Below are positions 8,198 through 64,000 of a DNA stretch of 64,000 nt, piece by piece. The position numbers and the translations under genes are program-made. The first letter of the stretch is position 1. Each line of letters opens with the position of its first letter. This DNA is from Ascidia mentula (taxonomy: Eukaryota > Chordata > Ascidiacea > Phlebobranchia > Ascidiidae). The notes beneath the pieces were generated by a model. The model did no database searches. It saw only the letters and a list, made by a program, of their open reading frames with translations, and was not told the origin of the DNA. The stretch lies in contig OX387198.1 of assembly GCA_947561715.1 (NCBI GenBank), positions 15,934,001 to 15,998,000 on the forward strand, read 5' to 3'.

Positions 8198-19668
<11,471 letters not shown>

Positions 19669-47001: not shown

Positions 47002-47024
47002 GCCTATAGCACGGTCCGACACAA

Positions 47025-47870
47025 AAAAAAAATTTGAAAACGAAATTTTTGTTTTGAAATTTTGTTTTCAAATTTCCAATTTTTCGCATGGTGTCGCAAG
47101 AGGACTATGTAGATATGCGGTACAATTTGCCTTGATTTGGCGATTGATTCTTAGTTCTTAAACGATCTTATCATAGAAATACTGGATTACATCAACTGGC
47201 ATTACAATCAAACCCAAATTGCGTGATTTAGCTGTAGGTGTAGCAAATGTTCGTCGGACACTTCGATTTAGGAAATATAAATTCTTGTTAATTGTCGCAA
47301 TGGTGGACTAAATTAATTGATTTGCAATTTAGCAGACAAATACCACAGTCATGTAGCAGACAATGCCGAAAAACTTCTCTTTATTTTGACGTATAGCGCG
47401 TAATAACCTTGTCTTTTACAGGTGATCGCATGTTAGTATTTACTTTTACATACAAGCGAATTGAAATTTAGCAGATATATACTGCAGCCACGTCAAGACG
47501 ATCATTGAAAAACGTAATACGCTACATGTTTTATGTTTTTCTTGCCACACCAAAAAGCATTCATTAATTTGTTTTAGGAAGTAGCGGGGAATGAGAAAAC
47601 GCTTGGTAGATGTTCGGTGTTGATTTTATGAAAACTTTTATAATGCACTATCAAAATGCCAAACAATCCTAGGTGAAAACTTTGGCGGAAACACGACGAA
47701 CTACAATTTCTTTTGTAAACATCAAACGAAATCATAGTTTCCCTTTTGTAAACCAAATGTCAAGTTTGCAAACAAAATTTCCCTTTTGAGAACAAAATTT
47801 TGAGTTTGTAAATAAAATTTCACTTCTGTAAACAAAATTTTCTATTGCGAAAAAAATTAAAAAAAAAATT
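47025..47870. repeat. Degenerate AT-rich repeats related to the right-hand satellite
   Basis: 47025-47085 carries an AACGAAATTTTTG and CAAAATTTC-like inverted block reminiscent of the 423-bp satellite palindrome. 47740-47860 has about four degenerate ~29-bp units around the core AAACAAAATTT. No gene seen from 46356 to 47980. Confidence 0.45.
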
Positions 47871-47979
47871 TCATATCGGAATAGTGTTGTTCAACTGATG
47901 GATAGACCCGTAAGAGCACTTTCATGAATGTTGCAGGTTTACTACTTCAGTGGATACAAGCTATATCAAATTCGAATCA

Positions 47980-48620
47980 ACTGTTTTAAAGATAATCATC
48001 GAATATCTTACACATTTTTGTATGCATAGTGCTGAAATTCGCTGGGCTGTTTCATGTTCGTATCCACTATGAATTCTGCAAAGATGAATGCTGTATCTAT
48101 CGTACTTTTAGAGTTGATAAGGGTCAAGGTGTTGAAAACGCGTCAAACCACCGTCATAGAATTTGCGCCCGTTTTAAGGCAAATCATCGAATATCCTACA
48201 CATTTTTCGATGTACAGTGCTGAAATTCGCTGTAATGTTTAATGTTGGCATCCTCTAAGACTACTGCAAAGATTAATGTTGTGGCTTAAGTAGTTTTGGA
48301 GTTAATAAGGGTCAAGCTACTTGAAATTCTGGTTAGCGCCTGTTTCAACGATAATCATTCAATATCTAACACATTGTTGTATGCATAGGACTGAAGTTCG
48401 CTGTGCTGTTTCATGTTGGTATCCACTATAAGACCTGCAAAGATTAATGTTGTGGCTTATGTAGTTTTGGAGTTAATAAGGGTCAAGCTACTTGAAATTC
48501 TGATTAGCGGCCTGTTTCAACGATAATCATTCAATATCTAACACATTGTTGTATGCATAGGACTGAAATTCGTAGTATTTGAGTTGATAATAAGGATCAA
48601 GCTGTTTAAAACGTCTATTC
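47980..48620 (+). repeat. Array 1 of ~171-188 bp tandem repeats (four units)
   Basis: The motif AATCAT(C/T)...AATAT begins at 47994, 48182, 48353 and 48525. Each unit continues with a CTGAAATTCG block, a GCAAAGATTAATG block and AATAAGGGTCAAG. Units 3 and 4 are most alike. Confidence 0.85.
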
Positions 48621-48749
48621 GTTTTCCAATTTAAAGTCAATGTAATTAAAAGCAAACGGTTTCCACAGTCCGATATCAAATGGACAGTGGTATCACGTTG
48701 CAAAATTTTATTAAAATTGAAGTTGAAACAAGCAAATAAACGGCTTGAC

Positions 48750-49150
48750 GCGATTCAAAAAAGTTTGACCCATATTACATTTTAAAGTACGGAAGTTATA
48801 ATAGTGATTTTTAAACTACACATGCAAGATACCAATAGCAAACAGCCCTGTGATTCTCAGCCTCATAAACAAAATAGTTTGTGAGTTATTGAATGATTTG
48901 CTCCAAAACGTGCGCCGTTCTAGGCGAATGACGCGTCTCAAAAAAAGGTTGACCCTTATTTAATTTAAAAGTGCAAAAGCTACACTAGTCATTTTTGACC
49001 TACAGGTACAAGATACCAATAAGAAAAAGCCCAGCGATTCTCAGACTCATAAACAAAATAGTTTGTGATTTATTGAATGATTTGCTCCAAAACGTGCGCC
49101 GTTCTAGGTGACGTCTCAAAAAAGGTTGACCCTTATTCAATTCAAAACAA
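48750..49150 (-). repeat. Array 2, inverted relative to array 1 (three units)
   Basis: TTGACCC-A/T-TATT starts units near 48765, 48951 and 49128. Read on the minus strand the units match array 1 in block order (ATAAGGGTCAA, GGTATC, TTCAGTCC-like, ATTCAATA). The two arrays face each other across about 130 bp, so a transcript would fold back on itself. Confidence 0.75.
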
Positions 49151-49334
49151 GTAGCAAGACTTTTCGAACCTAAGTATTCTCCATGGCGGTAACCTCGTTG
49201 GCCAGTGAACCAATCGGAAACGACATAAGTTTGCTGAGCAACACACATCACAACTGTCAAAAATCCCCAAAATTATGTAAATACATCAGAACTATTAAGC
49301 GTAAAGACTTTATTTGATGGAAAGTGAATAAAGA

Positions 49335-51125
49335 AAATTAATGTACAGCATAACACTCAGTACTAGCAAAATTATGAAAGCATTTGAAGGACTTTCTATA
49401 AAAGTGAACAAAGTCATTTACAGCAAACACTTGGTACCAGCAGAAATATTAAAGCATTTGAAGGCAATTTTTCTATAAGTGAACAAAGTCATTTACAGCG
49501 TACACTTGGTACCAGCAGAAACATTAAAGCATTTGAAGGCAATTTTAAGTGAACAAAGTCATTTACAGCAAACACTTGGTACCAGCAGAAAGATTAAAGC
49601 ATTTGAAGGCAATTTTAAGTGAACAAAGTCATTTACAGCAAACACTTGGTACCAGCAGAAATATTAAAGCATTTGAAGGCAATTTTAAGTGAACAAAGTC
49701 ATTTACAGCGTACACTTGGTATCAGCAGAAACATTAAAGCATTTGAAGGCAATTTTAAGTGAACAAAGTCATTTACAGCAAACACTTGGTACCAGCAGAA
49801 AGATTAAAGCATTTGAAGGCAATTTTAAGTGAACAAAGTCATTTACAGCAAACACTTGGTACCAGCAGAAATATTAAAGCATTTGAAGGCAATTTTAAGT
49901 GAACAAAGTCATTTACAGCAAACACTTGGTATCAGCAGAAATATTAAAGCATTTGAAGGCAATTTTAAGTGAACAAAGTCATTTACAGCAAACACTTGGT
50001 ACCAGCAGAAATATTAAAGCATTTGAAGGCAATTTTAAGTGAACAAAGTCATTTACAGCGTACACTTGGTATCAGCAGAAACATTAAAGCATTTGAAGGC
50101 AATTTTAAGTGAACAAAGTCATTTACAGCAAACACTTGGTACCAGCAGAAAGATTAAAGCATTTGAAGGCAATTTTAAGTGAACAAAGTCATTTACAGCA
50201 AACACTTGGTACCAGCAGAAATATTAAAGCATTTGAAGGCAATTTTAAGTGAACAAAGTCATTTACAGCAAACACTTGGTATCAGCAGAAATATTAAAGC
50301 ATTTGAAGGCAATTTTAAGTGAACAAAGTCATTTACAGCAAACACTTGGTACCAGCAGAAATATTAAAGCATTTGAAGGCAATTTTAAGTGAACAAAGTC
50401 ATTTACAGCAAACACTTGGTACCAGCAGAAATATTAAAGCATTTGAAGGCAATTTTAAGTGTACAAAGTCATTTACAGCAAACACTTGGTACCAGCAGAA
50501 ATATTAAAGCATTTGAAGGCAATTTTAAGTAAACTAAGTCATTTACAGCAAACACTTGGTACCAGCAGAAATATTAAAGCATTTGAAGGCAATTTTTCTA
50601 TAAGTGAACAAAGTCATTTACAGCATACACTTGGTACTAGCAGAAACATTAAAGCATTTAAAGGCAATTTTAAGTGTACAAAGTCATTTACAGCAAACAC
50701 TTGGTACCAGCAGAAATATTAAAGCATTTGAAGGCAATTTTAAGTGAACAAAGTCATTTACAGCAAACACTTGGTACCAGCAGAAATATTAAAGCATTTG
50801 AAGGCAATTTTAAGTGAACAAAGTCATTTACAGCAAACACTTGGTACCAGCAGAAATATTAAAGCATTTGAAGGCAATTTTAAGTAAACTAAGTCATTTA
50901 CAGCAAACACTTGGTACCAGCAGAAATATTAAAGTATTTGAAGGCAATTTTAAGTAAACTAAGTCATTTACAGCAAACACTTGGTACCAGTAGAAATATT
51001 AAAGCATTTGAAGGCAATTTTTCTATAAGTGAACAAAGTCATTCACAGCGTACACTTGGTACCAGCAGAAATATTAAAGCATTTGAAGGCAATTTTAAGT
51101 AAACTAAGTCATTTACAGCATAACA
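49335..51125 (+). repeat. 70-bp satellite, about 25 units, with higher-order structure
   Basis: The unit includes TCATTTACAGCAAACACTTG and CATTTGAAGGCAATTTTAAG. Most units are 70 bp; a few carry a 5-bp insertion (TTTTTCTATAAG). Five consecutive units (from about 49691) with a fixed order of variants (CGTAC/TATCAG, then CAAAC/ACCAG twice, CAAAC/TATCAG, CAAAC/ACCAG) recur from about 50041, a 350-bp higher-order period. Long open frames across it are an effect of stop-free monomers, not genes. Confidence 0.95.
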
Positions 51126-51362
51126 CTTGACAGAAATAATCAGACCATTCACACTCAAAAACGTTAATGTAAACTAACAACATTAATCAAAGGCTGAAAT
51201 TGCATTTCATTGTTAGCTTTTTGGTTTTGATGGGGACATATTTGAGGCCTCTGAATCAGAATGTGTGCAGCTTGACCGACCTGTTCACAGAAAAAAAGCT
51301 TAAATTATGTACTGTTTCCCAGCATTCAAAAACAACTCATGATTCTATTATGCTTAACAAAA

Positions 51363-54300
51363 TTAGAACTGATAATTCATTTTACCTTCATCTTTGGCAA
51401 TTCTCCCTGCCTTGTAAAACAGTTTGTTTCCAGGCCAGCGAGCGAAGCACAAATCTTTCACCTTTATTTCTTCAAAGTGTTTTATTTTCTTTCGGCCTTC
51501 CGTTTTCAAATCTGTAATCCGGTAGATGTCAAGGCATTCACCATCATCCAAGAACACTACTCGAATAAACTTGACCTCTACAAAACAAAAAGCCAGACAA
51601 AGATAAACACTTTAACAATATTTTAGTAATTTGTTCGTATTCATTACCTTGCAAATCATCTTGTTGTTGTGATGGTGCTGGTTGAACATCTGTCAAAAAC
51701 AATCAAAAGGTTAACCACATTTTATTTTGTCTTTAAACATTTAACTATACAGAGGCAATCAATAGTGCAAACCTTGCAAATCATCTTGTTGTTGTGATGG
51801 TGCTGGTTGAACATCTGTCAAAAACAATTGAAAGGTTAACCACATTTTATTTTGTCTTTAAACATTTAACTATACAGAGGCAATCAATAGTGCAAACCTT
51901 GCAAATCATCTTGTTGTTGTGATGGTGCTGGTTGAACATCTGTCAAAAACAATTGAAAGGTTAACCACATTTTATTTTGTCTTTAAACACTTAACTATGC
52001 AGAGGCAATCAATAGTGCAAACCTTGCAAATCATCTTGTTGTGATGGTGCTGGTTGAACATCTGTCAAAAACAATTGAAAGGTTAACCATATTTTATTTT
52101 GTCTTTAAACATTTAACTATACAGAGGCAATCAATAGTGCAAACCTTGCAAATCATCTTGTTGTGATGGTGCTGGTTGAACATCTGTCAAAAACAATTGA
52201 AAGGTTAACCATATTTTATTTTGTCTTTAAACATTTAACTATACAGAGGCAATCAATAGTGCAAACCTTGCAAATCATCTTGTTGTTGTGATGGTGCTGG
52301 TTGAACATCTGTCAAAAACAATTGAAAGGTTAACCATATTTTATTTTGTCTTTAAACATTTAACTATACAGAGGCAATCAATAGTGCAAACCTTGCAAAT
52401 CATCTTGTTGTTGTGATGGTGCTGGTTGAACATCTGTCAAAAACAAATAAAAAGTTAACCATTCACTGAAGAAATATATTTAATATAATACAAATCACAC
52501 ACAACACTTACCAGATGTAGAGGCACGAGCCTCCAACAACAGTCGAGCCTTTTCAACCCTTCTGTGTGGGTGTTGTACATTATATACTTGGTCAGCAACA
52601 GCAAGTGAATGACCAGAGGCTTTTGCCACAGCAATTTGAACCTCTTTTGGCTCATCTGCCATCCATGTGTGTATGAGTTTTCGTACTTCAGTCGCCGTTA
52701 AAGATGTGTTTTCAAACACAAAAGGAATAACCTTTTTAAAAATTTTTGAAAATTCTGCATTTGTCATTTTAAATGAGCCTGTTGCTGCTAAGTTTCTTGC
52801 TGACGTTGTTGGAAAAACTGGTGACTGCCCTGTAGGTTTTATCTTGTGATACATCCAAGCCAATTTACTGGTGGTTTCAATGTCTTGTAATTCAAGTGTA
52901 TTTAAAACAATGCACGCCGGTTGCTTGTCCTTCTGGTCCACCACCAGAATTGAGTAATTGCCCTCGTCAGTTTTTTCATAGTCCTGGAGCTCTCTAATGA
53001 GGAGACCAATCATTACAGATGGTCTACAGCCTAGTCTGCATATCACCCTGCAGAAAATATCCCCATACAATAGTTGCAGGTTTTCGTTTCCAACTTGGGA
53101 TTCAGACATGGCTCTAATTCTTGCAACTCTCTTGAATTCTTCGCTTTTTTCGTACTGTAGTATGGCATTATATGCATTTGATTTTATGTTGGACAACTTC
53201 TTTCTGGATTTTTCTTTAGTGTAAAATTCTCTTTTCTTTTTCTCTTTGTTTATGCGTGCATGCAGGTCCATTGTTTCCGAATGCACTAAATTTAAACATT
53301 TCTCGGAAATCAAATCAAACTGATTGTTTTTGTAAAATCTAAGGAAATTCAGTAATGTAGACAAATATGCAACTTTCGATGAAACTTGACCTTCACCTTT
53401 CAAATGTTGCTCTAAATTTTCAAAAATCTTTTGGGGGTTTTTAAATACTTCAATAGTTGGTATTAAAGTTCTTATTTGGTTGGCATTTGAGTGGGCCACT
53501 GCCTTGTCAACTCTTTTGCGTTTCCCTACTCCAAACTTTGATAAGTGCTCCTCATATTTAGTTATTACAGATTGCAAAGAACCAATCTGGGTCTTTGCAA
53601 CAAGAGTTTGAAATTGCTTGGATTTGGTGTCGATTGTTTTATGTAAATTTTCATAATGCTTAGATAAATTCTTTACTGCCCTTCCGCAAATGGGACAGAA
53701 GTGTCCCTCAAAATTTTGATACTTTCCAATTCTGTTTTTCTTCGCCCTACTGGCATACAGGAATTCTGACTTGTCCATGTCTGGATGGTATGTTTTGTAG
53801 TGGTATGTGACATTTTTATACAGCTTATCACATGCATGGCATTCCCTCAAACCACTTGATGATTCTACAAAGTATATTAAACGTTACTGAAGGCATATCC
53901 AAAAATTTTACACGTATTTTACTTTAGTTTTTAATTGACTAACCTAGAATAAAATTTATGTAACTTATAAAGCATACTTTTTATGTTGCTTTCTGGGTTG
54001 AACATTTTTTTTGAGTGTTTGCGGTCTTTTCTCCTTTTATGGTGATATCGCTCAATTTTTTTTCTGCAAATTAGTGAAGTGGTAAAATCTTTGTTACATA
54101 ACACAAGACATTAGCAAATTCTAACCTTTGGTCTTTTTTTGCTTTCCTGAAAAAAACAAAAACAACAGTATAAAATCTTGTAAACCTATTGATTCATTCA
54201 GACACTAATTATTCGCTGTTTCTCTATAGGAAGCAGGTTGCCAATTGTCTATTATTTAAAAATTTTAACAAACATTAATAGATAAAATATATTGCAAAAC

Positions 54301-56851
54301 AAAAATGGCATGGTCGGGTATGTAACACAATTTTATCATAAGTCTGCTTAAAGTGTAAAAAAATGAAAGGTCAGGTAAAGTAATTTTGAGGTTTCCTCAT
54401 GTTTGAAACTAATCAAATGATAAACACTCTAGCTTTTTTTTTATTTAGGATGTGAAGCTTTTCAACCTATTTAGGAGATTTAAAGACGTGTTAAATAGTT
54501 TTTAATGGAAACATGCAAACACAGTTGTTTGTGCAATTGTCACATAACTGGCATTTTAAAGTTTACACCATTGCATAAAGTTAGCAAAAATTTTTTTTCA
54601 GTTCTCATAAATGAATGAATGCAACTGTATTTTTTTTGTCTAAATCCTTAAACCAAAACCTCTTTTTAAATGTTGACCTAATCAACCTGACACAAAACAG
54701 ATCAACTTAATAAAAATTTTTTACTGACGCAACTCTATTTTGTTATGTAACAGTAATGTCACAATGACTAGTTTTTGAAAAACGTTGAAGATTTTTTTTG
54801 GACACTTTTTGAAAATATGACATATTGTGCTGCATAGGACAATAAATTTACCACAAAAAATGGAAGTTTTGTTATAGAGCTTGTGTCCCCAATTAAAAAT
54901 GGTTAAGTCCCCCCTCCCCCCGACTGATGTAAACAGCATGTAAAAAGTAACAAAACACTTACCATTTCAGAAATTGTTGGTATTGTTTATAGTCACTGCT
55001 ACTGCTGCTGGAGGAACTACTGCTACTGCTTTCTTCAGTAGAGTCATCAGATGACGATGATAAACTTGAATAAAAAGAAAATACATGTTTACATCACCCA
55101 ACGGTTTTCAGAAGTTAAAAGCACTAGTAATCATATATTTACCAATATAAGCTATCCTCATCACTGCTGCTATCAGAAAACTGTAGGGTTCTGTTAAAAA
55201 ATTAAAATTATAAAGTAAACAACCCAATTTTCTTTTATTTCTGCAACACCAAGATTGTTAAAGAAGCCAAAAACCATTCTTAGATGAGGGAGTTAAAAAC
55301 ATTTTTTTTAAAGTTTTACCACTGATCAGAAGCCAAGACAACTGATAAGAAGCCAATAAACGTTGTATATACCTTTTATGTTTCTTTGAAGCTTTTTCAT
55401 CCTTCTTATAGTCTCTAAAAATGATAATAAAATAAATTACACCACAAGAGTGAAAAATGCAATAAATTACACAGCAAGTAAAATAAAATAAAATAAATTA
55501 CACAGCAAGAGTGAAAAATGCTATGAAAAAAAGTGCCCAAAACATAAAATTTTGTGAAAATATGAATGAAAAGGGCTTTAAACAACTTGTGTAAAATGCA
55601 CATTAAATTCATTATCTAAACCAGGGGTTCTTAAAGTGGGGAGGGGGGGTGTAGATGCTTGGCAAGGGGGAGCGCAAACATTTTCAAAAATGACCAATCA
55701 GCGTTCCATTTGTATTTAGTATTTCCATGCAAAGAAACCTTTGTTTAAATGTTTGAAAGATTATGATGTTTGTCCCTCTTTACATCAGTTTTGTTACAAT
55801 GGTAACTGTGTACCAAAATTGATCATTATATTGTCGAAAATAGTTTTGCTACCTTTATCTGCGGCAAATATTTAAAGATATCGAAGTTTAGAAAAAAAGA
55901 GCAGTGCAGAGTATTTGCAGATTGTTTCGTTTCAAAAATGCAGTCACATCCCTCCCATTGACAAACGTTAAAAAAAGCTTGTTTTTGAATTGCGCATTTT
56001 TTGAGTTGTCGGACTAAGAGGGGGGCAAGATTTGACTAGTAAGGGGGCGCGACCAAAATAGTTTAAGAACCACTAATCTAATTACTACTTATAGTTACAG
56101 CCGCGGTTACGCTGTGTGAATCTCAAGATGTGCGTTCTGCGTTGTTACAGCGAACATTTGGGGCAGTGCATAAAAGTGACAAAATAATAATGTTCCGGGC
56201 CAGAGAATTTTTTAAATTGGTGTAGAACAAGCTTACAACATATAAATCACGTTATCATTGCATTTTTTTAAACACCTATGAAGTATAATCGCAACGCAAT
56301 GGGTTTGACAGTGATCAAAATGAATAGTTACATAATGCGTAGATAGCGAGCATTTGGGCGCTGCATACAAGTGTCAATTTAATGATGTTCCGGGTCATAG
56401 AATGTTCAAAAAAATGGTGAAGAATAAGCACAGAACATGTACATTACATTATTGTTGAGTTTTTTAAACACCTATAAGTGTATCGCAACGAAATGTGTTT
56501 GACCGCGGTCACCAATCAACTGCATCGTAAATGCTACGACTTACATAAATAACTCGCATTCGTAATAGCTAATTGTTACGTCATGTGTGAAACACAATTA
56601 TAGAAAAAAGATTTTTCGCACAAAAGACTGTGATCTTCATAGTATTAAAAATTTTTCATGCGGTCCACACGCTATTGTTGATAAAATTTTTTAAATAAAT
56701 TCGGTTAACCGAAGCTTCGATACATCACTACCAAAACTTAACATCAACTTAAAACACACAAAAGTTAAAATTAAAGAACAAGCATTTTTTCAAAAAAAAA
56801 AGTTAATTAAGCTTACTTGGCAAACAACTTTCTCCTTCTGAAATTGTCCAT
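51363..56851 (-). CDS. C2H2-like finger and tyrosine-recombinase-like protein with mini-exon repeats
   Basis: Fifteen minus-strand exons: 56817-56851, 55373-55414, 55143-55190, 54963-55064, 54126-54146, 53978-54063, 52512-53864, seven mini-exons (52392-52433, 52267-52308, 52145-52183, 52023-52061, 51898-51939, 51773-51814, 51648-51689) and 51363-51577. All phases match and the sum, 2190 nt, gives 729 residues from MDNFRRRKLFAK. Order: basic start; acidic Ser-rich region; Lys/Arg-rich region; two C2H2-like fingers (CHACDKL..., FCPICGRAVKNLSKHYENLH); a recombinase core-like domain; a Gln/Pro repeat of seven units; a C-terminal 70-residue piece with FLDDGE and CFARWPGNKLFYKAGR, Tudor-like as seen near BEN domains. 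In the core, RLGCRPS, a later Lys, TATEVRKL, ASGHS and a Tyr in ADQVYN fit the R-K-R-H-Y set of tyrosine recombinases (Crypton-type). Nuclear DNA binding is likely; strand cutting is unproven. No terminal repeats are seen, so a domesticated Crypton-like gene is the favoured reading. Confidence 0.82.
51648..52433 (-). repeat. Seven tandemly duplicated mini-exons (unit 122-125 bp)
   Basis: Each unit holds a 3' splice site, an exon of 42 nt (39 nt in units three and four of the transcript) and a 5' splice site. The exon starts and ends in phase 1 and encodes DVQPAPSQQQDDLQ, or the same less one Gln. Unit starts are spaced 122 or 125 bp. Introns are almost identical between units. Any number of these exons can be included or skipped without changing the frame. 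Confidence 0.95.
55622..56075. mobile_element. Non-autonomous hAT-type MITE in intron 1 of the recombinase-like gene
   Basis: Ends CAGGGGTTCTTAAAG and TTTAAGAACCACTA form terminal inverted repeats of hAT type. Flanks ATCTAAAC (55614-55621) and ATCTAATT (56076-56083) look like a slightly diverged 8-bp target duplication. No transposase inside. Confidence 0.75.
56084..56810. repeat. Two degenerate ~210-bp repeats in intron 1
   Basis: Blocks at about 56140-56320 and 56340-56520 share the order GCGAACATTTGGG, ATGTTCCGGG, AAACACCTATGAAG and CGCAACGAAATG (with small differences). Family unknown; no coding potential. Confidence 0.55.
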
Positions 56852-57227
56852 TTCGCCCTCCGCTGAACCACGTAACTTTGACAAAGAAAAACTGTGCCGA
56901 ACAAAGACTTTGAAATCAATGTAGCCGAAAATAATTTGACATAAAACCTTCTTTCATTTGAGTGAATAACTATTGGTTACAGAATAAAGCGTCAATTTAA
57001 AAAAAAAAAAAATAAAATAAACTGTTAAAAGATTTTTCATTCAAATATCATCAGGGCTCAATCTACCCAGAAATAATAACAATTGCACTACTGCCGCGGC
57101 GCTGAATTATTCTTTTTCTGGTACGGCTTATTTGCTTGACTAACACTGATCTTTGGTGCGGTTTCGAAATGCGCTTCAGCTTTCGTTCTTATGCGTTTTA
57201 TACAAAAAATTTTCATTTTTTGAAACA

Positions 57228-59975
57228 GCTAACAGCTTTAAATAACTAACACCAACACTGTTACGACGCACTAGTTAAATTCCAACACAGTGGGGCAACG
57301 CAAAAACAACTTGCAATGTAGGTCGAGTCGCAGCTGGGCATCTAAGCCCAGGGACAACCAGACGCCTAATAAACTGCATAAACGATCGAAACCTGCACGG
57401 TTGAAGGGACGCCTGTTTACTTGTAATGAAAACAATCACAACTTTGCTTTACTTCAAAGTAAACATTAAATTTACGCAGATTTATCGTCGGCTGAGAAAA
57501 TTGCAAACGTTATTCGAAAAGAAATTATAATTCGAAACCAAAATTTGCGTTTCCAACGCCCTGGTTGTTGGGAAACATGATTACTTGTAAATAACTGATG
57601 TTCGTGCGATCCATTTTGGAATTGTTTCGAAACACGCCTTAGTGTTCGTTGTTCTGTTAAATATTATAAAAACAATTACAATTTTACTTTACTTCAAAGT
57701 AAATATTCAATTTACGCATAATTAGCGTAAACTTGACATTAAAATAAACTGCTTTTCACACAAATAACAACTTTAAACTTTCGAATAGCAACATGCAGTT
57801 CGTGGATTGTTATTATTGTAAATCTATGACGTAATTATGTAACAATTTTATTGATAAACATAAGTGGTGTGATATTTTAGTAATTTATTGGCGGAACCCA
57901 AACCAACTTGCATTTCGTTGTTAAATCAAAACTAAATTTGGTTTGCATGCATTTTTCAAACGGGAATTCAAATGAGATCTACGTGCGGAACATTTTGGAA
58001 CTGTTCGAAACAGGCTTTTATTGTTTTTTTTCTTTTGTTCACAAAACATGTTCAATATTGCATGACGTTTTTGTAAATTGAAACAGTGGCTAACAGCCTT
58101 GTAAAACCATCACCAACACTGTCACGACGCACTAGTTAATTTCCAACACAGTGGGGCAACGCAAAAATAACTTGCAATGTAGGTCGAGTCGCAGCTGGGC
58201 ATCTAAAACTTAAGAGAAAAAAGCCCAGGGACAACCAGACGCCTAATAAACTGCATAAACGATCGAAACCTGCACGCAGGGTTGCCAGGGTGGCGGTATT
58301 CCCGCCCAATTGGCCTGGTTTTCAACATCGAGTTGCGGGTTATTTTTACGAGTTGCGGGTTGCGGTTTATTGGGCGGGTTCGCCAATGACATTTTCAACC
58401 CCTATAATCACGCATTCTGGCACTAATGTCTCATACCAAGAGTAAACCAATGCGTTCATTTCCCGACAAACGAAACAATCGTACGGCGCAGAGAGTAATA
58501 ATGCGTTCAGAGAAACACGCAGTGGGTGGGTGCGACAGAAACTTGAACCATGCAACTGGAGTCGTTTTTGCAAAGCAGCAATGGTGCTGAGAAAATTTTA
58601 TTTTTGCAAACAAATTTAAAAAATATAGTAACCAATGAACTAAGGATTGCTTGAGAAAACAATGCAGTCAAGAGGTCTTTCGTAGTGGGTAAATTTTTTT
58701 GCCATAATGCTTGCAGCTTCCACGTTTGATCGCTTTACACACGCGTATGACGAAACTACGGAATACAGATGTACGAGATTTTGTAGTTGTAAAAATACAT
58801 GTTTTAATTGATTGCGTTTTTTAAAGTTGTTAGTTTTAGTTATATTATGACCCAAATTCATCAAATATTGCAATGTTTTTGCTATGTATTAATGCTCCTT
58901 GCAATTAAAGAAAACGTAATAGGTAGCGCCATGGTCAGAACCAAATGTGAAAAAACGTAACCGCGGTAGGTTAAAGCTACTGAGTGCGACAATTCACTAA
59001 CAGTTGTCGATTTCAAGCTAAGTCAGAGTAAAATTGGGCTGGTTTTGGGCTTGTTTCAGAAATTTCTTGTTTGGACGGTTTTTGGGCTAGTTTTGGCAAA
59101 GCGTTGGGCGGTTTTAGAAAATTTTACCTGGCAACACTGCCTGCACGGTTGAAGGGACGCCCGATTACTTGTAATGAAAACAATCACCACTTTGCTTTAC
59201 TTCAAAGTAAACATTAAATTTACGCAGATTTATCGTCGGCTGAGAAAATTGCAAACGTTATTCGAAAAGAAATTATAATTCGAAACCAAAATTTGCGTTT
59301 CCAACGCCCTGGTTGTTGGGAAACATGATTACTTGTAAATAACTGATGTTCGTGCGATCCATTTTGGAATTGTTTCGAAACACGCCTTAGTGTTCGTTGT
59401 TCTGTTAAATATTATAAAAACAATTACAATTTTACTTTACTTCAAAGTAAATATTCAATTTACGCATAATTAGCGTAAACTTGACATTAAAATCAACTGC
59501 TTTTCACACAAATAACAACTTTAAACTTTCGAATAGCAACATGCAGTTCGTGGATTGTTATTATTGTAAATCTATGACGTAATTATGTAACAATTTTATT
59601 GATAAACATAAGTGGTGTGATATTTTAGTAATTTATTGGCGGAACCCAAACCAACTTGCATTTCGTTGTTAAATCAAAACTAAATTTGGTTTGCATGCAT
59701 TTTTCAAACGGGAATTCAAATGAGATCTACGTGCGGAACATTTTGGAACTGTTCGAAACAGGCTTTTATTGTTTTTTTTCTTTTGTTCACAAAACATGTT
59801 CAATATTGCATGACGTTTTTGTAAATTGAAACAGTGGCTAACAGCCTTGTAAAACCATCACCAACACTGTCACGACGCACTAGTTAATTTCCAACACAGT
59901 GGGGCAACGCAAAAATAACTTGCAATGTAGGTCGAGTCGCAGCTGGGCATCTAAAACTTAAGAGAAAAAAGCCCA
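57228..59975. repeat. Older ~865-bp tandem repeat (about 2.3 units), itself a diverged dimer
   Basis: CACCAACACTG starts at 57250, 58111 and 59859; the second interval is longer only because of the 863-bp insertion at 58277. Each unit contains two diverged relatives of the 423-bp satellite to the right, seen for example in GCGGAACCCAAACCAACTTG beside the satellite's GGGGAACCCAAACCAACTTC. No gene seen. Confidence 0.85.
58277..59139. mobile_element. hAT-type MITE with exact 8-bp target duplication
   Basis: Ends CAGGGTTGCCAGG and CCTGGCAACACTG are inverted repeats, flanked by CCTGCACG at 58269-58276 and 59140-59147. The matching position in the neighbouring repeat unit (about 57391-57398) is an empty site with a single CCTGCACG. 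Short open frames inside (58367-58873) show no transposase similarity. Confidence 0.92.
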
Positions 59976-59976
59976 G

Positions 59977-62900
59977 ATGTAAAACCCGCGAAGTTTCGCA
60001 TATTTAGTGCGTGGTGATAATGTTATCACTGAAATAAACTGTTTTCTACGTAAATAACATCATTACACATTACAGTCGCATAAAACAACTCGAGTATTTC
60101 GAAAATGTCACACAATTGTGTCGCAATTTCATTGATGGCTTGTAATATTTAACTAATTTCTTCGGGGGAACCCAAACCAACTTCTGTTTCGTTTTCAAAC
60201 CTAACACGAAAACGAAATTTCCTTTTGCAAAGGTTTTTCGAAACGAAATTTTGTTTTAAAAACCAAAATTTCGTTTCCAATTCCCCTTTGCGGCACACGG
60301 TCAGATTCGTATGTGAAACAAGATCTTTCATCATCTTTTGGCGTAAATAGTGCAGGATTCACTTTATCACGATGAACAATCACGATTTTGCTTTACTTAG
60401 ATGTAAAACCCGCGAAGTTTCGCATATTTAGTGTGTGGTGAGAATGTTATCATTGAAATAAACTGTTTTCTACGTAAATAACATCATTACACTTTACAGT
60501 CGCGTAAAACAACTCGAGTAATTCGAAAATGTCACACAATTGTGTCGCAATTTCATTGATGGCTTGTAATATTTAACTAATTTCTTGGGGGAACCCAAAC
60601 CAACTTCTGTTTCGTTTTCAAACCTAACACGAAAACGAAATTTCCTTTTGCAAAGGTTTTTCGAAACGAAATTTTGCTTTAAAAACCAAAATTTCGTTTC
60701 CAATTCCCCTTTGCGGCACACGGTCAGATTCGTATGTGAAACAAGATCTTTCATCATCTTTTGGCGTAAATAATGCAGGATTCACTTTATCACGATGAAC
60801 AATCACGATTTTGCTTTACTTAGATGTAAAACCCGCGAAGTTTCGCATATTTAGTTTGTGGTGAGAATGTTATCATTGAAATAAACTGTTTTCTACGTAA
60901 ATAACATCATTACACTTTACAGTCGCGTAAAACAACTCGAGTATTTCGAAAATGTCACACAATTGTGACGCAATTTCATTGAGGGCTTGTAATATTTAAC
61001 TAATTTCTTCGGGGAACCCAAACCAACTTCTGTTTCGATTTCAAACCTAACACGAAAACGAAATTTCCTTTTGCAAAGGTTTTTCGAAACGAAATTTTGT
61101 TTTTAAAACCAAAATTTCGTTTCCAATTCCCCTTTGCGGCACACGGTCAGATTCGTATGTGAAACAAGATCTTTCATCATCTTTTGGCGTAAATAGTGCA
61201 GGATTCACTTTATCACGATGATCAATCACGATTTTGCTTTACTTAGATGTAAAACCCGCGAAATTTCGCTTATGTAGTGCGTGGTGATAATGTTATCACT
61301 GAAATAAACTGTTTTCTACGTAAATAACATCATTACACATTACAGTCGCATAAAACAACTCGAGTATTTCGAAAATGTCACACAATTGTGTCGCAATTTC
61401 ATTGATGGCTTGTAATATTTAACTAATTTCTTCGGGGGAACCCAAACCAACTTCTGTTTCGTTTTCAAACCTAACACGAAAACGAAATTTCCTTTTGCAA
61501 AGGTTTTTCGAAACGAAATTTTGTTTTAAAAACCAAAATTTCGTTTCCAATTCCCCTTTGCGGCACACGGTCAGATTCGTATGTGAAACAAGATCTTTCA
61601 TCATCTTTTGGCGTAAATAGTGCAGGATTCACTTTATCACGATGAACAATCACGATTTTGCTTTACTTAGATGTAAAACCCGCGAAGTTTCGCATATTTA
61701 GTGTGTGGTGAGAATGTTATCATTGAAATAAACTGTTTTCTACGTAAATAACATCATTACACTTTACAGTCGCGTAAAACAACTCGAGTAATTCGAAAAT
61801 GTCACACAATTGTGTCGCAATTTCATTGATGGCTTGTAATATTTAACTAATTTCTTGGGGGAACCCAAACCAACTTCTGTTTCGTTTTCAAACCTAACAC
61901 GAAAACGAAATTTCCTTTTGCAAAGGTTTTTCGAAACGAAATTTTGCTTTAAAAACCAAAATTTCGTTTCCAATTCCCCTTTGCGGCACACGGTCAGATT
62001 CGTATGTGAAACAAGATCTTTCATCATCTTTTGGCGTAAATAGTGCAGGATTCACTTTATCACGATGAACAATCACGATTTTGCTTTACTTAGATGTAAA
62101 ACCCGCGAAGTTTCGCATATTTAGTTTGTGGTGAGAATGTTATCATTGAAATAAACTGTTTTCTACGTAAATAACATCATTACACTTTACAGTCGCGTAA
62201 AACAACTCGAGTATTTCGAAAATGTCACACAATTGTGACGCAATTTCATTGAGGGCTTGTAATATTTAACTAATTTCTTCGGGGAACCCAAACCAACTTC
62301 TGTTTCGATTTCAAACCTAACACGAAAACGAAATTTCCTTTTGCAAAGGTTTTTCGAAACGAAATTTTGTTTTTAAAACCAAAATTTCGTTTCCAATTCC
62401 CCTTTGCGGCACACGGTCAGATTCGTATGTGAAACAAGATCTTTCATCATCTTTTGGCGTAAATAGTGCAGGATTCACTTTATCACGATGATCAATCACG
62501 ATTTTGCTTTACTTAGATGTAAAACCCGCGAAATTTCGCTTATGTAGTGCGTGGTGATAATGTTATCACTGAAATAAACTGTTTTCTACGTAAATAACAT
62601 CATTACACATTACAGTCGCATAAAACAACTCGAGTATTTCGAAAATGTCACACAATTGTGTCGCAATTTCATTGATGGCTTGTAATATTTAACTAATTTC
62701 TTCGGGGGAACCCAAACCAACTTCTGTTTCGTTTTCAAACCTAACACGAAAACGAAATTTCCTTTTGCAAAGGTTTTTCGAAACGAAATTTTGTTTTAAA
62801 AACCAAAATTTCGTTTCCAATTCCCCTTTGCGGCACACGGTCAGATTCGTATGTGAAACAAGATCTTTCATCATCTTTTGGCGTAAATAATGCAGGATTC

Positions 62901-64000
62901 ACTTTATCACGATGAACAATCACGATTTTGCTTTACTTAGATGTAAAACCCGCGAAGTTTCGCATATTTAGTTTGTGGTGAGAATGTTATCATTGAAATA
63001 AACTGTTTTCTACGTAAATAACATCATTACACTTTACAGTCGCGTAAAACAACTCGAGTATTTCGAAAATGTCACACAATTGTGACGCAATTTCATTGAG
63101 GGCTTGTAATATTTAACTAATTTCTTCGGGGAACCCAAACCAACTTCTGTTTCGATTTCAAACCTAACACGAAAACGAAATTTCCTTTTGCAAAGGTTTT
63201 TCGAAACGAAATTTTGTTTTTAAAACCAAAATTTCGTTTCCAATTCCCCTTTGCGGCACACGGTCAGATTCGTATGTGAAACAAGATCTTTCATCATCTT
63301 TTGGCGTAAATAGTGCAGGATTCACTTTATCACGATGATCAATCACGATTTTGCTTTACTTAGATGTAAAACCCGCGAAATTTCGCTTATGTAGTGCGTG
63401 GTGATAATGTTATCACTGAAATAAACTGTTTTCTACGTAAATAACATCATTACACATTACAGTCGCATAAAACAACTCGAGTATTTCGAAAATGTCACAC
63501 AATTGTGTCGCAATTTCATTGATGGCTTGTAATATTTAACTAATTTCTTCGGGGGAACCCAAACCAACTTCTGTTTCGTTTTCAAACCTAACACGAAAAC
63601 GAAATTTCCTTTTGCAAAGGTTTTTCGAAACGAAATTTTGTTTTAAAAACCAAAATTTCGTTTCCAATTCCCCTTTGCGGCACACGGTCAGATTCGTATG
63701 TGAAACAAGATCTTTCATCATCTTTTGGCGTAAATAGTGCAGGATTCACTTTATCACGATGAACAATCACGATTTTGCTTTACTTAGATGTAAAACCCGC
63801 GAAGTTTCGCATATTTAGTGTGTGGTGAGAATGTTATCATTGAAATAAACTGTTTTCTACGTAAATAACATCATTACACTTTACAGTCGCGTAAAACAAC
63901 TCGAGTATTTCGAAAATGTCACACAATTGTGTCGCAATTTCATTGATGGCTTGTAATATTTAACTAATTTCTTGGGGGAACCCAAACCAACTTCTGTTTC
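59977..64000. repeat. 423-bp satellite, 9.5 monomers, three-monomer higher-order repeat
   Basis: Monomers start at 59977, 60401, 60824, 61247, 61671, 62094, 62517, 62941, 63364 and 63788 and continue past the window. Three types recur: A (GTGATAATGTTATCAC palindrome), B (GTGTGTGGTGAG, or a close form, with TTGGGGGAACC) and C (TTTGTGGTGAG, GATTTCAAACC). Order A-B-C-A-B-C-A-C-A-B gives a 1270-bp period, with one B missing. Each monomer holds the inverted repeat GAAACGAAATTTTG / CAAAATTTCGTTTC. The ~60-codon open frames repeated here are artefacts of the repeat. Confidence 0.95.

What the first reader, a model, noticed from the sequence alone, without database searches (positions are those of the whole stretch)
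51648..52433. A tandem array of seven self-contained mini-exons
Each ~125-bp unit carries acceptor, 42-nt (or 39-nt) phase 1-1 exon and donor, and all seven join in frame between the recombinase-like exon and the last exon. The unit is both a minisatellite and a coding module: copy-number change alters the protein by 14 residues per step with no frame risk, and splicing can tune it further. Near-identical introns imply active turnover. I know of no described recombinase-like gene built this way.
Basis: seen in the sequence. Interest (0 to 1): 0.9.

Follow-up and report, generated by a model that had tools for sequence, protein, structure and literature searches.

The report
Transposon gene with tandem mini-exon array
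A sea-squirt-like genome carries a large jumping element whose recombinase gene contains a row of near-identical tiny exons; the row differs in length between copies of the element, always by whole units that leave the reading frame intact.

Summary
The array is real: seven 125/122-bp units on the minus strand, each AG-exon-GT, exons 42 or 39 nt, phase 1-1, joining in frame between a recombinase exon and a last exon. It lies not in a host gene but in a multi-copy element: 13 copies, 20.7-29.2 kb for the 12 with both ends found, no terminal inverted repeats seen, one recognisable gene (two C2H2-type fingers, tyrosine-recombinase fold by model comparison). The copies carry 6, 7, 8 or 12 units in 11 arrangements; 94 of 95 mini-exons encode DVQPAPSQ(Q)QDDLQ; 11 of 13 copies stay open to the last-exon stop. 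A Ciona relative joins the same recombinase to the same C-terminal domain, which supports splicing across the array. Relatives also have repetitive linkers: two 57-nt mini-exons in a second family here, 9-aa repeats in another Ciona protein. Best reading: a Crypton-like transposon whose linker is an exon-intron minisatellite turning over by whole units. Unproven: inclusion of the units in mRNA and any function of their number. Skipping all units is also in frame, the exon-constraint signal is weak, and the element's other tandem arrays vary too.

The parts
52512..53864 (-). Recombinase exon: two C2H2-type fingers (by eye) and a tyrosine-recombinase domain; ends in phase 1 at donor G|GTAAGT
   Evidence: open frame; 1353 nt, phase 1; exon start chosen by eye at an AG; fold by model comparison
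52434..52511 (-). Intron, 78 nt, recombinase exon to unit 1
52392..52433 (-). Mini-exon 1 (42 nt, phase 1-1)
52267..52308 (-). Mini-exon 2 (42 nt)
52145..52183 (-). Mini-exon 3 (39 nt)
52023..52061 (-). Mini-exon 4 (39 nt)
51898..51939 (-). Mini-exon 5 (42 nt)
51773..51814 (-). Mini-exon 6 (42 nt)
51648..51689 (-). Mini-exon 7 (42 nt), donor GTAATG
51578..51647 (-). Intron, 70 nt, last unit to last exon
51363..51577 (-). Last exon, 71 residues counting the split first codon, then stop; weakly Tudor-like C-terminal domain
   Evidence: 46% identical to Ciona P0001 397-467, E 1e-18; Pfam LBR_tudor only E 0.094, below its cut-off
47003..64000 (-). Part of the transposable element inside the window; 3' end at 47003, 5' end outside at G000 C2:16010169
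49344..51129 (.). 70-bp tandem array of the element, 15.2-25.2 units between copies
48746..49147 (.). 184-bp tandem repeat of the element
48220..48572 (.). 171-bp tandem repeat of the element
59975..64000 (.). 423-bp satellite in the 5' part of the element, running on past the window edge

Best explanation
The array is the linker-coding part of the recombinase gene of a large Crypton-like DNA transposon. SHOWN by sequence: a multi-copy element with shared ends and one recognisable gene; 6-12 whole units per copy; frame kept in 11 of 13 copies; splice dinucleotides kept in every unit. INFERRED: the units are spliced into the mRNA as symmetric phase 1-1 exons and give an 82-163-residue, probably disordered Q/P/S/D-rich linker between the recombinase domain and a Tudor-like C-terminal domain. 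Unequal exchange or slippage between near-identical exon-intron units adds and removes whole units; because each exon is symmetric, such changes and any exon skipping cannot break the frame. The array grows like the element's other satellites but is coding; unit number is more probably tolerated than set.
For: Multi-copy: recombinase ORF at 99-100% in 13 places, 12 open and one with a TGA; the array in the same places; 5' ends at 13 of 13 copies, 3' ends at 12 of 13. Units: 95 in 13 copies, 94 coding the same 13/14-residue motif; the 82 introns between units are all 83 nt, so no unit lacking AG or GT was overlooked. 11 of 13 copies open to the last-exon stop, 603-684 residues from the recombinase-exon start. 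In the 11 young copies 0 of 42 exon columns vary in bases against 11 of 83 intron columns, Fisher p 0.015; the only exon length change is one codon. Ciona P0001 joins recombinase (52%) and C-terminal domain (46%). A second family (L034) has two 57-nt phase 1-1 mini-exons at the same place. Ciona P0002 has 19 exact ATTSGH[VI]GG units there. L017 and L020 against the window: 9 and 10 synonymous, 7 and 6 non-synonymous changes, with 291 and 1095 sites.
Against: No transcript data. Skipping all units is also in frame in 12 of 13 copies. Over all 13 copies the exon/intron contrast is not significant (3/42 v 12/83, p 0.38), and shared descent and homogenisation make columns non-independent. Among the young copies the recombinase exon shows no excess of synonymous change against the window (0-3 synonymous, 1-2 non-synonymous per copy). 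Internal donors GTTTGC fit the recalled donor consensus poorly. P0001, the closest relative, has a 34-residue linker without repeats.
Confidence: 0.7

Rival explanations
1. Functional tuning: unit number and exon skipping set linker length, so the element adjusts recombinase activity or partner binding, and selection keeps the array long.
For: The same linker is repetitive with unrelated sequences in three lineages. No copy of the 13 has fewer than 6 units. Internal donors look weaker than the first and last ones (judged by eye against a recalled consensus), which would favour skipping.
Against: Another array of the element varies as freely (70-bp array 15.2-25.2 units), so variation needs no selection. 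P0001 has no repeat. No phenotype data.
Confidence: 0.2
2. Intronic array: the units are a satellite inside one long intron from 52511 to 51578 and are normally skipped.
For: Skip-all is in frame in 12 of 13 copies, including L020, whose array holds a stop. Weak-looking internal donors. The element is rich in non-coding tandem arrays. Precedent: in an earthworm metallothionein clone the duplicated exons are reported absent from the final transcript (PMC12783039, passages seen).
Against: In 94 of 95 units the only exon changes are one synonymous site or a whole codon; in the 11 young copies exon bases do not vary while introns do. AG and GT are kept in every unit. The second family has symmetric mini-exons in the same place.
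Confidence: 0.12
3. Assembly artefact or chance reading of a satellite.
For: Tandem arrays are error-prone in assemblies; I saw no reads.
Against: Thirteen separate loci show ordered, partly different arrays sharing unit variants, and homology fixes both flanking exons.
Confidence: 0.02

Closest known systems
Crypton DNA transposons of animals (PMC3212892: abstract, sections 5 and 8 and find-passages seen)
   Same: Tyrosine-recombinase gene, no terminal inverted repeats seen, no reverse transcriptase seen, multi-copy.
   Different: That paper says animal Cryptons have no C-terminal domain; this one has one, plus a mini-exon linker and satellites, at 20.7-29.2 kb. I obtained no sequence match to a Crypton.
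Homogenised repetitive exon-intron units of Argiope MaSp2 silk genes (PMC9779670, passages seen)
   Same: Coding repeat units delimited by near-identical iterated introns, arisen more than once, with unequal crossing-over proposed.
   Different: A structural silk gene; here a mobile element's recombinase with 39/42-nt exons.
Schistosome micro-exon genes (as described in PMC8293314, passages seen)
   Same: Short symmetric exons that can be dropped without losing frame.
   Different: [quoted passage not shown] here one exon is repeated in tandem within a transposon gene.
Mutually exclusive tandem duplicated exons (PMC9741552, passages seen)
   Same: Tandem exon duplication.
   Different: There one of two homologous exons is chosen; here all units can be joined and are near identical.

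Membership tests
Tyrosine recombinase | Cre/Xer/Int fold | tested here: met
   [not shown]
Tyrosine recombinase | Catalytic R-K-HxxR-H-Y | tested here: met
   R287, K318, R401, H425, Y434 invariant in 4 of 4 sequences; the usual H of HxxR is T398. The canonical motif is recalled. pLDDT is under 50 just at the H-Y stretch (model 325-336).
Tyrosine recombinase | Match to a curated family model | tested here: inconclusive
   None of 4 sequences matched a Pfam or NCBIfam recombinase model.
Crypton | Encodes a YR and no reverse transcriptase | tested here: inconclusive
   No ORF of 120 aa or more in window 47003-60000 besides the YR exon. Of 22 ORFs of 60 aa or more in 53900-59975 nine were scanned with Pfam, plus five from 48527-51626: no match above cut-off. 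The 5' part of the window copy beyond 70000 was not read.
Crypton | No terminal inverted repeats | tested here: met
   3' terminal 20-mer not found inverted near the 5' end, and no long inverted match between the ends; GG at both junctions.
Crypton | Animal Cryptons: no C-terminal domain | tested here: not met
   Conserved C-terminal domain in the last exon; criterion from PMC3212892 section 8.
Crypton | YR clusters with Crypton YRs in a tree | not testable with these tools
   No Crypton sequence at hand; three protein searches found only two Ciona relatives.
DIRS-like retrotransposon | Reverse transcriptase | tested here: inconclusive
   None seen among the ORFs scanned; coverage as above.

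The most novel reading that the evidence does not exclude
A mobile element carries a built-in length adjuster for its own recombinase: an exon-intron minisatellite in the linker, reinvented with different sequences in this recombinase family, that changes protein length by 13 or 14 residues per step through DNA turnover between copies and through exon skipping within a copy, with no cost in frame.
Probability: 0.2. Interest if true: 0.85.

Novelty: new variant of a known kind. Interest (0 to 1): 0.62.

Why it matters
Thirteen near-identical copies in one genome form a natural series of the same gene with 6, 7, 8 and 12 mini-exons. That makes it testable how exon arrays grow, shrink and stay in frame, and whether linker length matters to a recombinase. 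It also describes a large recombinase transposon that no family library searched here names, with copies so alike that it was probably active recently, and a linker that became repetitive with unrelated sequences in three lineages of one protein family.

Tried and rejected
Single-copy host gene: rejected, 13 copies. Retroelement: no reverse transcriptase seen, but only part of the small ORFs was scanned. First structure model of the whole 462-residue ORF: too poor (pLDDT 54.9), not searched. Pfam, NCBIfam and PDB sequence searches gave no credible match. The 423-bp repeat as a genome-wide satellite into which the element inserted: the listed matches lie in the element copies except four partial rows near C70:5.61 and 5.72 Mb (not all of its 216 matches were listed, and only 30 of 37 candidates were scored). 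Whether the 9-aa repeats of P0002 are mini-exons too: not testable, no Ciona DNA held. Two further relatives (L036, L037) showed no repeated linker exon in self-comparison or by eye; a third (L038) gave only a broken last-exon match. tblastn with the window's last exon did not find the L034 last exon; that one rests on reading the sequence by eye and holds a stop. A first pattern match missed two units each in L017 and L020, corrected. The exon-constraint test is significant only when these two older copies are left out. Ten paper searches listed no transposon gene with a tandem mini-exon array; one search found no paper and one irrelevant one, and the library lacks most subscription journals.

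Full report
OBSERVATION. On the minus strand seven units lie between the recombinase exon and a last exon. Their exons are 42, 42, 39, 39, 42, 42, 42 nt in gene order, each preceded by ACAG and followed by GT. Tandem Repeats Finder reports period 125, 6.6 copies, 97% matches. The recombinase exon (52512-53864, 1353 nt; its start chosen by eye) ends in phase 1, each unit is phase 1-1, and the last exon (51363-51577) starts in phase 1; the joined frame is open to the last stop. Without splicing the array is full of stops.

WHAT IT LIES IN. The window is part of an unnamed 196-Mb genome of 79 contigs. The array DNA matched at 14 places of about 700 bp or more plus two short ones; these are 13 loci, because the longer array of L016 gives two rows and the short rows belong to L013 and L014. 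The recombinase ORF matched at 13 places at 99-100%, then at 14 weaker rows. Comparison of 12 other copies with the window shows one element. The ten copies read at the 3' side, the window included, end in ...GACCGTGCTAT[A/T]GG and then differ. The 5' end reads GCATGGTCAGCC... and is preceded by GG in 6 of 6 copies read. A search with the 5' end found all 13 copies at 97-100% among 40 scored matches, the rest weaker or partial. A search with the 3' end found 12 of the 13, not L017, plus two ends on contig C69 without a recombinase match. From these coordinates the window copy is 29,167 bp and the other eleven with both ends are 20,695-25,849 bp (ends uncertain by a few bases). No inverted repeat joining the ends was found. 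The element holds satellites of 423, 70, 184 and 171 bp besides the mini-exon array. I call it Crypton-like by structure, not by membership.

THE ARRAY IN 13 COPIES. Unit counts: window, L009, L010, L011, L012, L015, L017: 7; L013, L014: 8; L016: 12; L018, L019, L020: 6; 95 in all. Together they add 82-163 residues. Exon types: 68 of 42 nt; 23 of 39 nt (one CAA codon less); 3 with a synonymous change; 1 with a stop, in L020. The 82 introns between units are all 83 nt, of 15 types. Written as strings of unit types there are 11 distinct arrays in 13 copies. Eleven copies are open from the recombinase exon to the last stop (603-684 residues); L017 stops within the recombinase exon, L020 in its third unit. 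Among the 11 young copies no exon base column varies, against 11 of 83 intron columns (p 0.015); among all 13 it is 3 of 42 against 12 of 83 (p 0.38). So constraint on the mini-exons is suggested, not proved. For the recombinase exon the two older copies show relatively more synonymous change (9 and 10, against 7 and 6 non-synonymous, with 291 and 1095 sites), but the young copies do not (0-3 against 1-2). Skipping every unit is in frame in 12 of 13 copies.

RECURRENCE. A second recombinase family of the genome (L034, 35% identical) ends its recombinase exon in phase 1 and is followed by two 57-nt phase 1-1 mini-exons of unrelated sequence, VDYEGSATSSSDKPT..., with AG and GT, in a duplication about 84% identical over 191 columns. 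Then comes a stretch that resembles the last exon by eye, with a stop, which tblastn did not find. L035, of the same family, has both mini-exons, 2.8 kb apart. P0002 carries a 288-residue linker with 19 exact ATTSGH[VI]GG units at the same place. P0001 has a 34-residue linker without repeats, and in L036 and L037 I saw no repeated linker exon. The linker is thus repetitive in three lineages with unrelated sequences.

HOW IT PROBABLY WORKS. Near-identical exon-intron units misalign and gain or lose whole units. Because the exon is symmetric, each change adds or removes 13 or 14 residues of a probably disordered linker. The 70-bp array varies as freely (15.2-25.2 units), so the simplest view is general satellite turnover in this element, tolerated in the linker. 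Tuning by unit number, or by skipping at the weaker-looking internal donors (GTTTGC against GTAAGT and GTAATG), is possible and untested.

KNOWN PARALLELS. Homogenised repetitive introns between repeated coding units are described for Argiope silk genes, with unequal crossing-over suggested (PMC9779670, passages). Symmetric micro-exons are described for schistosome genes (PMC8293314, passages). Exon duplications absent from the transcript are reported for an earthworm gene, a caution (PMC12783039, passages). Animal Cryptons are described as having no C-terminal domain and no terminal repeats (PMC3212892, section 8). A tandem mini-exon array in a transposon's recombinase did not appear in my ten paper searches. 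Verdict: a real, unusual variant of known kinds.

Noticed in passing
window 59975-64000, on past G000 C2:16004000: The element's 5' part is a 423-bp satellite; the listed matches elsewhere are in the element's own copies except four partial rows on C70.
   Followed up: partly
both ends of the element; window 47003; L039-L042: GG precedes the 5' end in 6 of 6 copies read and closes the 3' end in 10 of 10: a possible crossover or target dinucleotide.
   Followed up: partly
L014 against window 54226-56354: Copy L014 lacks about 2.1 kb just upstream of the recombinase exon although its recombinase ORF and array are open.
   Followed up: no
G000 C69:14303030-14303728 and C69:14319173-14319871: Two more 3' ends of the element at 99% with no recombinase match on that contig: truncated or non-autonomous copies.
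   Followed up: no
G000 contig C71: 11 of the 14 weaker recombinase rows lie on this one contig, for example near 12.69, 12.82, 15.40, 15.51 and 17.29 Mb.
   Followed up: no
P0002 (Ciona LOC113475390), linker: 288-residue linker dominated by 9-aa repeats with a higher-order pattern; whether they are separate exons is unknown.
   Followed up: partly
window 16127-18031: ORF pieces look by eye like a family 9 glycosyl hydrolase gene (recalled resemblance, not tested).
   Followed up: no
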